DNA from: Anaerovibrio lipolyticus LB2005
GTDB taxonomy: Bacteria; Bacillota; Negativicutes; Selenomonadales; Selenomonadaceae
Length of the DNA: 64,000 nt
Assembly (NCBI RefSeq): GCF_000621545.1
Contig: NZ_JHYA01000010.1
Location: 1-64,000, forward strand
Direction of reading: 5' to 3'
Positions 10,632-49,532 of this stretch are shown one piece after another. How positions within the stretch are numbered: position 1 is the first letter of the stretch; every line of letters starts with the position of its first letter. Below the pieces are notes generated by a model. It did not search any database. It worked only from the letters and a program-made list of their open reading frames with translations, and had not been told where the DNA came from. The position numbers and the translations under genes are program-made.

Positions 10632-10720
10632 AAGCTTTGAAAAAAGCGTAACTCTCCTAAATATAATACACACACACTAGAAAAGGGATTCCCAGAGGAC
10701 AGGGAATCCCTTTTCTAGTG
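10632..10720 (+). ncRNA. candidate iron-regulated small RNA
   Basis: The predicted transcript from the Fur-box promoter starts near 10632 and ends at a strong hairpin with 19-bp perfect arms (10675-10693 / 10702-10720). The inner 9-bp stem GGGATTCCC/GGGAATCCC is followed by TTTT, like a terminator. The single-stranded part contains CTCTCCT (10652-10658), complementary to a Shine-Dalgarno sequence. That is the layout of RyhB/FsrA-type iron-sparing RNAs, but no sequence match to either is claimed. The alternative is a remnant promoter whose gene has been lost. Confidence 0.4.
10675..10720. terminator. 19-bp perfect inverted repeat, likely bidirectional terminator
   Basis: The arms begin CACTAGAAAAGGGATTCCC (10675-10693) and are repeated in reverse complement at 10702-10720, with an 8-nt loop. 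A-rich and T-rich parts inside the arms flank a 9-bp GC-rich core, so either strand could terminate here. Confidence 0.65.
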
Positions 10721-10810: not shown

Positions 10811-11025
10811 AAAGTGCCGGGACAACCGTCTGTCACACGTCACACGTCGCTAAAGTTTTTCTTGTCCTAAACAATAGCGAAAAAAATCATAACTCGCGTC
10901 GCCTTTACAAGACCATCTTTGCGTCGCTCAAACAAATGATTTTTTCCACTAAAGCAGAAGAACGACAAGAAAAGACTTCTTAACGCTCCGTGGACTATTG
11001 TTCCATACAATTATCCCGGCACTTT
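10811..11025 (-). repeat. large palindromic element, copy A (inverted)
   Basis: The outer arms AAAGTGCCGGGA (10811-10822) and TCCCGGCACTTT (11014-11025) are a perfect 12-bp inverted repeat. The inner stem is AAAAAATCAT (10881-10890) / ATGATTTTTT (10936-10945). The apex carries the reverse complement of the family core, split by a longer loop between two GCGTCGC copies. No reading frame of interest lies within. It belongs with the elements at 11056-11240 and 19581-19769. Confidence 0.65.
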
Positions 11026-11055: not shown

Positions 11056-11240
11056 AAAGGCAGATACTGATTGGCTTGAGCATTAAGTTATGGGGCGTAA
11101 AAAAGCATTTTTTGCTAACCTGCACAGTAAGAAAACATCGTTGTTTGAGCGAAGCGAGTTCGATTTTTCTTGCTGCTAATTACGTAGTAAAAAATGCTTT
11201 TAGCACCATAACTGGGCGAAAGCCAACAGTTACTGCCTTT
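11056..11240 (+). repeat. large palindromic element, copy B
   Basis: An imperfect palindrome of 185 bp. The outer arms are 11056-11077 and 11220-11240, the middle arms are 11087-11115 and 11186-11211, and the inner stem is AAGAAAACATCG (11129-11140) / CGATTTTTCTT (11161-11171). The apex is the core TTGTTTGAGCGAAGCGAGTT (11141-11160), identical to the core at 19671-19690. The right arm nearly reaches the stop codon of the glycosyltransferase gene, so it could act in the 3' end of that transcript. Confidence 0.7.
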
Positions 11241-19580: not shown

Positions 19581-19769
19581 TGAGGTGAGGTGCAGTTAGA
19601 TTGAGCAATTAGGGCACGGTTCGTTAAGAAACTTTTTGTTGCGTACTTTAATATTAGTGGAAAAAATCATTTGTTTGAGCGAAGCGAGTTATGATTTTTT
19701 ACACTATATAAATGCAAGAAAAAGTTTTAGAACCGGGACCGTCGCGAAAGCTAACTGCACCTCACCTCA
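19581..19769 (+). repeat. large palindromic element, copy C
   Basis: A 189-bp palindrome with perfect 19-bp outer arms: TGAGGTGAGGTGCAGTTAG (19581-19599) and its complement at 19751-19769. The inner stem is AAAAAATCAT (19661-19670) / ATGATTTTTT (19691-19700) and the apex is the core TTGTTTGAGCGAAGCGAGTT (19671-19690), identical to that at 11141-11160. The outer arms are unrelated in sequence to those of the other copies. It lies 8 nt after the binding-protein stop codon. Confidence 0.7.
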
Positions 19770-46867: not shown

Positions 46868-46982
46868 ACCTCATCCCCCTCCTATGGAGGGACCTTCCCC
46901 AAGGGAGAAGGCTTGTAGCTAGTTGAGCTGCATCAATTGCCTTCCCCGCTGGGGAAGGTGTCAACAAAGTTGACGGATGAGG
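46868..46982. repeat. palindromic intergenic repeat between secA and prfB
   Basis: The ends CCTCATCC (46869-46876) and GGATGAGG (46975-46982) are inverted. Inside are two related modules with CCTTCCCC (left) and CTTCCCCGCTGGGGAAGG (46941-46958). The right end abuts the secA stop codon. A similar module, CTTTCCCTCTGGGGAAGG, occurs alone at 21931-21948. Repeats of this look are common between genes in Negativicutes; that is from memory, not a search. Confidence 0.65.
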
Positions 46983-49532
46983 TTATTTATCACGACCACA
47001 GCAATTTTTGTACTTTTTCCCGCTGCCACATGGGCATGGGTCGTTACGGCCAATCTTCTCGCCCTTTACAACAGGCTGCTTTTTGGCTGGCTCCTGGTCC
47101 CCTTCCCCTGAGGAATGGGAGCTCTTGGCCTGGGCCAGACGCTGCTTTGCCTGCTCCTCCATGGCACGCTGCTGCTCTGGAGTTATGATATTTACGCGAT
47201 ACATCATGGTGGCAATATCAGTCTGAATGGCGTCAATCATGGACTGGAACATATCATGGCCCTTGATTTTGTACTCAACCAGTGGGTTACGCTGACCATA
47301 GGACAGGAGGCCAATACCCTCACGGAGCATATCCATATCATCAAGGTGCTCCATCCAATGATTATCAATAACACGAAGCATAACTATGCGCTCCAGCTCA
47401 CGCATATTAGTCTCGCCAAACATCTTCTCACGAAGCTCATAGGCCTCAGTAGCCAAGTTCATCAGAGTCTCCTGAACCTCATCGCGGCTCATTTCCTCCA
47501 GCTCCTCCAGCTTCAGTCTGCCGGCTGGTGCATAAATCTGCTCTGCATCCTTAATGAGGTCCCCAAGGGTCCACTGCTCAGGATACAGCTTGGCATTGGC
47601 ATACTGGTCCATTTCGGACTCGATAATCTGGCCAATCATGTGCATGATGTGCTCCTTCAGGTCCTCACCCTTCAGCACCTGCTTGCGCTCCTTGTAGATA
47701 ACCTCGCGCTGCTGGTTCATAACATCATCATATTCAAGGACATGCTTACGCATATCGAAGTTACGTCCTTCAACCTTCTTCTGGGCATTCTCGATGGATT
47801 TGGTAATCATCTTGTGCTCAATAGGGTCATCCTCACCCATGCCAAGACGGTCCATAATAGAGGAAATATTCTTGGCACCGAAAAGACGGAGGAGGTCATC
47901 CTCCAAGGACAGATAGAATCTGGAATTACCAGGGTCACCCTGACGGCCGGCACGACCGCGGAGCTGATTATCAATACGGCGAGACTCGTGGCGCTCAGTA
48001 CCTACGATAAAGAGACCACCAAGCTCTGGTACGCCTTCACCCAGCTTAATATCAGTACCACGACCAGCCATGTTGGTGGCAATGGTAACAGCATTCTTCT
48101 GACCAGCGTCAGCGATAATTTCTGCTTCCTTCTCATGGAACTTTGCATTCAGTACGTTATGGGAAATTCCACGCTTTCTCAGTATAGCACTGATTTCCTC
48201 AGACTGGGCAATGGATGTGGTACCAATGAGAATTGGCTGACCAGTGGCATGAATCTTCTCCACATCGTTAGCCACAGCCTTCAGCTTGGCACGACGGGTC
48301 TTATAAATAACATCCGGGAAATCCACGCGCTTAACTGGCATATTGGTAGGAACAACCACTACAGGAAGGTTATAAATCTTGATAAACTCGTCTTCCTCAG
48401 TCTTGGCAGTACCAGTCATGCCACCCAGCTTCTTGTACATACGGAAGTAGTTCTGGAAGGTGATGGAAGCCAGAGTCTGGGACTGACGGCGAACCTCCAG
48501 ACCTTCCTTGGCCTCAATAGCCTGATGCAAGCCATCGGAATAACGGCGGCCCTCCATAAGACGGCCTGTAAATTCATCAACGATAACGATTTCGTCATCC
48601 TTAACCACATAATCACGGTCACGCTTCATAAGAGCCTTGGCACGAAGAGCAGCAGTGAAGCAGTGGGACATTTCAATATTCTCGGAATCGTACATATTAT
48701 TTACGCCCAGGAACTTCTCCACCTTGGAAACTGCACCCTCAGATGGAGCAACAGTCTTCTGCTTCTCATCCACGGTGTAGTCCTCACCGGCCTTCAGGAT
48801 TTCAACAGCCTTGGCCATACGGGTATACATATCAGTAGACTTGGTACCGGCACCGGAAATAATCAGTGGGGTTCTGGCCTCATCGATAAGGATACTATCC
48901 ACCTCATCCACAATGGCAAAGTTCAGCTCACGCTGTACCATCTGATTAATATCTACCACCATGTTATCACGGAGGTAATCAAAGCCATACTCGTTGTTGG
49001 TACCAAAGGTAATATCACAGCTATATGCGAATTTACGCTCAGGGAAGTCCATATCATGCTTGATAAGACCTACACTAAGACCCAGGAAGTTATAAAGACG
49101 TCCCATCCACTCACTATCGCGCTTTGCCAAATAGTCGTTGACGGTAACCATGTGAACGCCCTTGCCAGTAAGTGCATTAAGATATACTGGCAATGTTGCC
49201 ACCAGTGTCTTACCTTCACCGGTACGCATCTCTGCAATTTTGCCCTCATGAAGGCAGATACCACCAATCATCTGAACATCAAAATGTCTCATGCCCAGCA
49301 CACGACGGGAGGCCTCACGAACTACGGCAAATGCCTCAGGAAGAATATCATCCAGGGTCTCACCATTGGCAAGACGCTCCTTAAATTTCTCTGTATGTTT
49401 AACAAGGGAGGAGTCGCTAAGCTCGGTCAATTCTTCTTCATAAGAATTAATCTGGTCCACGATTGCTCTCATTCGTTTTATTTCTTTTTCATTATTGTCG
49501 CCTAAAAATCTTTTAAAGATGCCTAACAACAA
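46983..49532 (-). CDS. secA: protein translocase ATPase SecA
   Basis: Motor of the Sec pathway; drives unfolded preproteins through SecYEG. 849 residues. Walker [15 protein letters not shown] (about 100-113), the [15 protein letters not shown] box, the [12 protein letters not shown] motif of the second helicase domain, and a C-terminal SEC-C zinc tail ([18 protein letters not shown]). The length is typical. The gene is followed by a palindromic repeat and prfB; secA-prfB adjacency is a standard Firmicute arrangement. Confidence 0.98.

What the first reader, a model, noticed from the sequence alone, without database searches (positions are those of the whole stretch)
19581..19769. Same 20-nt core, different arms: structure is conserved while arm sequence is not
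Copy C shares the exact core TTGTTTGAGCGAAGCGAGTT with copy B, yet its arms (perfect 19-bp outer pair) are unrelated to those of B while still fully self-complementary. Ordinary MITEs share terminal sequences and vary inside; here the apex is fixed and the arms vary. This points to selection on folding or to a copying mechanism that makes new arms.
Basis: partly seen in the sequence, partly recalled or inferred. Interest (0 to 1): 0.62.

Follow-up and report, generated by a model that had tools for sequence, protein, structure and literature searches.

The report
Hairpin repeats with one fixed tip
The window holds three members of a family of repeated DNA hairpins whose tip hardly changes while the two sides of the stem change together; hairpins with the same tip turn up in several other bacterial phyla, so an unknown factor may recognise the folded shape rather than the stem sequence.

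Summary
Hairpin C (19581-19769) is real; A (10813-11021, minus) and B (11060-11239, plus) are relatives, and the genome holds about 42 copies. "Arms unrelated" is overstated: copies align along their whole length. The core observation holds: the apex is nearly fixed, and stems change on both sides together (230 two-sided cells, 75 in shuffles). Stem mismatches are G.T far more often than A.C (161 to 34 in 99 elements), even where neighbouring genes run the other way, so one strand seems selected to fold, as RNA or ssDNA. Copies are gained and lost between species; C lies inverted at the same site in a sister assembly. Neighbouring copies stand back to back (21 of 23 pairs seen). Best reading: REP/BIME-like extragenic hairpins recognised by apex and internal loops. 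Target-site duplications and GTAG/CGTC tags were not found; no Y1 transposase or reverse transcriptase was found in this genome. The mover is unknown.

The parts
19581..19769 (+). copy C, whole element (model match 19585-19767)
19581..19599 (.). C outer arm, 5' side (perfect 19 bp with 19751-19769)
19751..19769 (.). C outer arm, 3' side
19600..19612 (+). conserved outer internal loop, 5' side (ATTGAGCAATTAG)
   Evidence: alignment of 33 copies
19741..19750 (+). conserved outer internal loop, 3' side (GTCGCGAAAG)
19622..19632 (+). conserved second internal loop, 5' side (CGTTAAGAAAC)
   Evidence: CGTNAA recurs in hairpins of other phyla
19725..19730 (+). conserved second internal loop, 3' side (TTTTAG)
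19671..19690 (+). C apex TTGTTTGAGCGAAGCGAGTT; its GCGAAGC (19679-19685) is, from memory, the extraordinarily stable DNA mini-hairpin
   Evidence: the type of hairpin is described in PMC10527192, passages
11060..11239 (+). copy B, whole element (apex 11141-11160)
10813..11021 (-). copy A, whole element, with a longer apical hairpin; forms a back-to-back doublet with B (38 bp apart)

Best explanation
C is one member of a family of repetitive extragenic hairpin elements. Shown: the family is dispersed and varies in presence between species; stems stay paired by two-sided changes; mismatches are of the kind tolerated on one defined strand; apex and internal loops are conserved in sequence; neighbouring copies form back-to-back doublets. 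Inferred: the element is recognised in single-stranded, folded form (ssDNA, for instance at a replication fork, or its RNA) through the GA-rich apex and the CGTNAA/TAG-type internal loops, so that any arm sequence is acceptable as long as it pairs and arms drift fast by compensatory change. Replication template switching across the palindrome probably helps, by repairing arms and by inverting the element in place. Inferred and weakest: the copies spread as non-autonomous, REP/BIME-like units through a trans-acting factor that was not identified and that is neither a Y1 transposase nor a reverse transcriptase detectable in this genome.
For: About 42 copies in the genome (40 model hits over 100 bits plus two at 74 and 81). 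Among 300 genomes of the class 46 have hits at E 0.01. Model hits at E 1e-8 are 37, 33, 35, 6 and 60 in the congeners G008, G002, G013, G014, G006. The C site holds the element in G000, G002 and G008 and lacks it in the six other congeners whose site I read. Covariation: 26 of 39 pairs change on both sides, 230 cells against 75.4 in shuffles, none of 500 as high. Orthologous copies: 55 double changes that keep the pair, about 12 doubles expected if the sides were independent (36 of 54 pair rows). G.T to A.C in stems with a scoring that treats all mismatches alike: 161 to 34 in 99 of 101 elements; 75 elements have more G.T, 6 more A.C, 18 tie; 18 to 2 where both neighbouring genes run opposite to the element. 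Doublets: 21 of 23 adjacent pairs back to back, 2 tandem, none face to face. Hairpins with the same apex elsewhere: proximal pairing above the control's 99th percentile in 53 of 103; arms unrelated between clusters (0.282, shuffled 0.261); G.T to A.C 50 to 13 with one hairpin per cluster; doublets 13 of 15 back to back.
Against: No mover was found: no PF01797 and no PF00078 hit in this genome or in G013, which have about 42 and 35 copies. No target-site duplication (38 of 42 copies). I have no clean, exactly bounded empty site: presence/absence often comes with 20-40 nt of flank change. Movement was inferred, not observed. G.T over A.C cannot tell RNA from ssDNA, and a strand-asymmetric mutation process is not excluded. 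Elements inherit pairs from one another, so counts are not independent, and no tree-aware test was run. If single copies flip freely, the strict doublet orientation is unexplained. About half of the other-phyla hits fail the strict hairpin test (50 of 103).
Confidence: 0.5

Rival explanations
1. Each copy is a cis-acting RNA hairpin in the 3' part of transcripts (terminator or mRNA stabiliser), kept by selection at its own locus.
For: By simple ORF calling, 37 of 38 copies examined lie downstream of at least one neighbouring gene (14 convergent, 23 co-directional, 1 divergent). C lies between a substrate-binding-protein gene and a permease gene of an ABC transporter (names by eye), a classical place for such hairpins. 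18 of 38 have a T-rich 3' flank.
Against: Co-directional copies are 12 in sense and 11 in antisense to the genes, and the G.T bias stays on the element's own strand in the antisense ones (18 to 2). Orientation differs between two sister species at 8 of 18 shared loci. A terminator needs no fixed apex.
Confidence: 0.2
2. Mutation alone: the palindromes are old repeats kept paired by replication template switching, without selection on folding.
For: Template switching homogenises arms and inverts spacers (PMC8604942, abstract) and makes multibase compensatory changes (PMC8794818, abstract and passages). C is inverted in place in G008 at 99% identity.
Against: Internal loops stay asymmetric, although switching would tend to remove them. 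G.T and A.C should be about equal for a double-strand process but are 161 and 34. The apex is fixed in unrelated bacteria.
Confidence: 0.12
3. A plain MITE family with shared terminal inverted repeats and a lost DDE-type autonomous partner.
For: Dispersed, non-coding, palindromic, variable between species. Outer ends often read like GGGCAG...CTGCC (by eye). In genus g17 a version sits in a longer repeat ending in TACAAACTGCAATTTA.
Against: The ends are the least conserved part (median identity 0.48-0.50). No flanking direct repeats (mean 3.87 nt, control 4.02). I saw no autonomous copy, but did not search for DDE transposases.
Confidence: 0.1
4. The hairpins of other phyla are not one class with these: GCGAAGC is simply the most favourable cap for a long DNA palindrome, so the apex arose many times.
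For: Hairpins of this type are extraordinarily stable in DNA (PMC10527192, passages). Arms are unrelated between clusters.
Against: 19 identical letters extend beyond the stable 7-mer. The back-to-back rule (13 of 15), the CGTNAA loop on the 5' arm (39 of 103, against 10 on the other arm) and the G.T bias recur.
Confidence: 0.2

Closest known systems
REP / BIME / REPIN with GTAG or CGTC tags (PMC3733652, abstract and passages; PMC8049555 and PMC6006769, passages)
   Same: Extragenic palindromes in many copies, downstream of genes, singlets and oriented doublets, often of unlike partners; single-strand hairpin logic; the CGTC superfamily has no dedicated transposase; several phyla.
   Different: About 180-210 nt here instead of 20-40; fixed apex and internal loops instead of a tagged foot; GT[AG]G at the foot in 5 of 38 and [CT]GTC in 0 of 38; no Y1 transposase in this genome.
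Stem-loop sequence (SLS) repeat families of bacterial genomes (PMC2267715, abstract)
   Same: Intergenic repeat families sharing a predicted fold.
   Different: Those families were built by sequence clustering and HMMs in 40 genomes; here one apex runs through unrelated arm sequences in several phyla. Whether any of the 92 families overlaps this one was not checked.
MITEs such as ERIC, NEMIS, YPAL (names in PMC3733652, passages)
   Same: Palindromic, dispersed, transcribable; sizes of about 100-200 bp recalled.
   Different: Here the ends vary most, and no duplication flanks them.
Template-switch hairpin evolution (PMC8794818, abstract and passages; PMC8604942, abstract)
   Same: Paired arm changes and in-place inversion.
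   Different: A mutational process, not an element; does not fix the apex.

Membership tests
REP/REPIN | GT[AG]G tetranucleotide at the 5' foot of the hairpin | tested here: not met
   5 of 38 own copies (38 of 42) within a 12-nt foot window; about 3 expected by chance, my estimate
REP (CGTC superfamily) | [CT]GTC motif at the foot | tested here: not met
   0 of 38
REP/REPIN | RAYT (Y1 transposase) in the genome | tested here: not met
   PF01797 finds none in G000, G013, G014; 10 of 16 genomes of the genus have a match; the E. coli control rings
REP/REPIN | inverted doublets of preferred orientation | tested here: met
   21 of 23 in the family, partial lists; 13 of 15 elsewhere
MITE | target-site duplication | tested here: not met
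   flanking direct repeats mean 3.87 nt against 4.02 in the swapped-flank control, 38 copies
MITE | conserved terminal inverted repeats | tested here: not met
   outer arms are the least conserved segments, though still above shuffles
Any Rfam RNA family | match at gathering score | tested here: not met
   none on A, B, C; none at the hairpins of eight other loci
Retroelement | reverse transcriptase in the genome | tested here: not met
   PF00078 finds none in G000 and G013; 7 of 16 genomes of the genus have a match
Structured RNA | transcript of the conserved strand | not testable with these tools
   no expression data

The most novel reading that the evidence does not exclude
A pan-bacterial class of apex-anchored hairpin elements: one 19-nt apex and CGTNAA/TAG internal loops are read by a widespread trans-acting factor on a folded single strand, while arms of any sequence are allowed and are continually rewritten in pairs; the elements occur as singlets and strictly back-to-back doublets in at least five phyla.
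Probability: 0.4. Interest if true: 0.85.

Novelty: new variant of a known kind. Interest (0 to 1): 0.66.

Why it matters
Repeat surveys look for conserved sequence, so a class conserved in shape and apex but not in arms would be missed. Orthologous copies in sister species make it a natural experiment on whether paired stem changes come from selection or from template switching. It also points to an unidentified factor, perhaps shared across phyla, that reads a folded single strand.

Tried and rejected
Rfam, strict and permissive, on the window and strict on eight other loci: nothing at the hairpins. RAYT-type mobility: no Y1 transposase in this genome. Reverse-transcriptase mobility: none in this genome. 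Phage origin: of 54 viral-contig stretches with the 18-mer most repeat two phage contexts without hairpin arms, and about five look like host hairpins (by eye). Integron attC, bridge RNA and ribozymes were considered from memory only and dropped. REPtron-like gene between doublets: the ORFs between two widely spaced doublets (L326, L384) show nothing I recognise (no family search). Literature: gagcgaagcgag and its complement are held by three papers each, all on unrelated subjects by title (listings only); other searches.

Weaker or contrary controls: the whole-arm test for the other-phyla hairpins gave 78 of 103 above a swapped-arm 99th percentile in one run but 47 of 103 in another, where the swapped arms could come from near relatives that still pair. 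The proximal test with cross-cluster controls gave 53 of 103, and I rely on that. 21 of 124 places lacked flank and were not tested. Inversion: only C itself is a clean in-place flip (99% identity, near flanks kept), and it rests on one assembly. Of 18 unambiguous G000-G008 loci 8 are inverted, but in the other 7 element and near flanks are also more diverged, so replacement is possible there.

Full report
What is there. The 20-mer apex occurs at 11141-11160 and 19671-19690 only. Around the second lies a 189-nt hairpin with a perfect 19-bp outer stem, folding at -51.1 kcal/mol as DNA (z -12.0), -81.4 as RNA of the plus strand (z -10.3) and -69.3 as RNA of the minus strand (z -10.9). The genome has 13 exact TTTGAGCGAAGCGAG words. 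A covariance model from 33 copies finds 40 places above 100 bits and two more at 74 and 81 bits; most of the other 40 hits are reverse-strand echoes of the same places. Only A, B and C lie in the window. Copy A carries an extra apical hairpin; some other copies carry apical hairpins of their own.

Arms. The copies are homologous throughout. Conserved in sequence are the apex, the loop TTGAGCAATTAG / GCGAAAG and the loop CGTTAAGAAA / TTTTAG; the stems between them vary. On the consensus structure 90.7% of cells pair (74.8% in shuffles, 41-52% when slid), 26 of 39 pairs show two-sided change and 230 cells do (75.4 in shuffles); none of 500 shuffles reached these values. The tool warns that related sequences can exceed shuffles without structure, so I lean more on the next tests.

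Strand. I aligned each left arm to the reverse complement of the right arm with a scoring that treats all mismatches alike. G.T mismatches in stems outnumber A.C 161 to 34 in 99 of 101 elements of three genomes (first pass: 96 to 17 in 55 elements). A double-strand process would give about equal numbers. In copies whose two neighbouring genes run the other way the ratio is 18 to 2, in sense copies 28 to 7, in convergent settings 23 to 5, so read-through from neighbouring genes is not the cause. G.A exceeds C.T as well (144 to 27), partly through inherited loops. This cannot separate RNA from ssDNA. The apex holds GCGAAGC, which I recall as the extraordinarily stable DNA mini-hairpin; that type is described in PMC10527192 (passages).

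Dynamics. The C site holds the element in G000, G002 and G008 and not in G013, G014, G006, G011, G010 and G009; the site in the remaining congeners was not read. In G008 it is the same element (99% identical) turned around. By flanks, 18 unambiguous loci are shared by G000 and G008: 10 in the same and 8 in the opposite orientation. Of the 8 with element identity 0.98 or more, 7 are in the same orientation and one (C) is inverted; of the other 10, 7 are inverted, and in those 7 the nearest 40 nt of flank are also diverged. C is thus a clean inversion; the others may be replacement. Orthologous copies show 55 double changes that keep the pair and 11 that break it, against about 12 doubles expected, with 117 single changes, 61 keeping and 56 breaking the pair (36 of 54 pair rows, not independent). 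Neighbouring genes are convergent in 14, co-directional in 23 and divergent in 1 of 38 copies examined (simple ORF calling). No flanking direct repeats stand out.

Doublets. Of 23 adjacent pairs less than 400 bp apart among 211 listed elements, 21 are back to back (minus then plus), two are tandem, none face each other. Within the genus alone it is 15 of 17; the six pairs from other genera were picked by eye, and some pairs are orthologous between species. A and B of the window are such a doublet.

Other phyla. By those titles, with phyla assigned from memory, hairpins that pass the strict test come from Bacteroidota, Pseudomonadota, Bacillota, Patescibacteria and a Desulfuromusa MAG; a Gastranaerophilales MAG and Halanaerobium pass only the whole-arm test. 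Of 103 with enough flank, 53 pair next to the apex better than the 99th percentile of cross-cluster swaps (32 of 60 clusters), and the 20 nt beside the apex are hardly more alike between clusters than shuffles (0.282, 0.261). G.T to A.C is 81 to 28, or 50 to 13 with one per cluster. CGTNAA lies in the 5' arm of 39 of 103 and on the other arm of 10; with a mirrored TAG in 27 against a mean of 14.2 and a maximum of 22 in 200 swaps. Doublets within 800 bp, allowing one mismatch, are 13 back to back and 2 tandem. Of five plasmid records with the word I looked at three; in PLSDB's gene table, which is incomplete, the spot is intergenic and bears no feature. Viral contigs mostly carry the word without a hairpin.

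Comparison. REP/BIME elements are the nearest kind (PMC3733652, abstract and passages): extragenic, dimeric, downstream of genes, one superfamily without a known transposase. The tested defining features, tag at the foot and Y1 transposase in this genome, are not met. The family seems to work like a REP, but I do not file it as one. I found no print record of the apex in the searches, which cover open-licence full texts only.

Noticed in passing
window 10675-10720: Perfect 19-bp hairpin containing ATTCCC-8 nt-GGGAAT, close to copies A and B; it resembles the dRS3 consensus of Neisseria (consensus recalled).
   Followed up: no
window 46868-46983: A different palindromic repeat (ACCTCATCC...GGGGAAGG...GGATGAGGT); a sequence that looks similar by eye occupies the C site in G014 and G006 (L205, L206), as if the site were a hot spot for extragenic repeats.
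   Followed up: partly
L231, L232: Another palindromic-looking repeat (GCGGGGGAATTTTTTCGCC...AAAAAGTTTCACCGC) sits at several of the same orthologous intergenic sites.
   Followed up: no
L127, L133-L136 (genomes G125, G252, G102): In genus g17 a hairpin of this family lies inside a longer repeat that ends in TACAAACTGCAATTTA, in G252 repeatedly at contig ends; in G125 it abuts what looks by eye like an IS3-type transposase.
   Followed up: partly
L319, L332, L361, L368 and others: Many Bacteroidota hairpins are followed by a stretch like CTTGATTTTTTGGTTACTTTTG and its complement, a second small hairpin of unknown role.
   Followed up: no
L415-L468 (viral contigs): The 18-mer GTTTGAGCGAAGCGAGTT recurs in many viral contigs beside what look like phage repressor and replication genes, without hairpin arms.
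   Followed up: no
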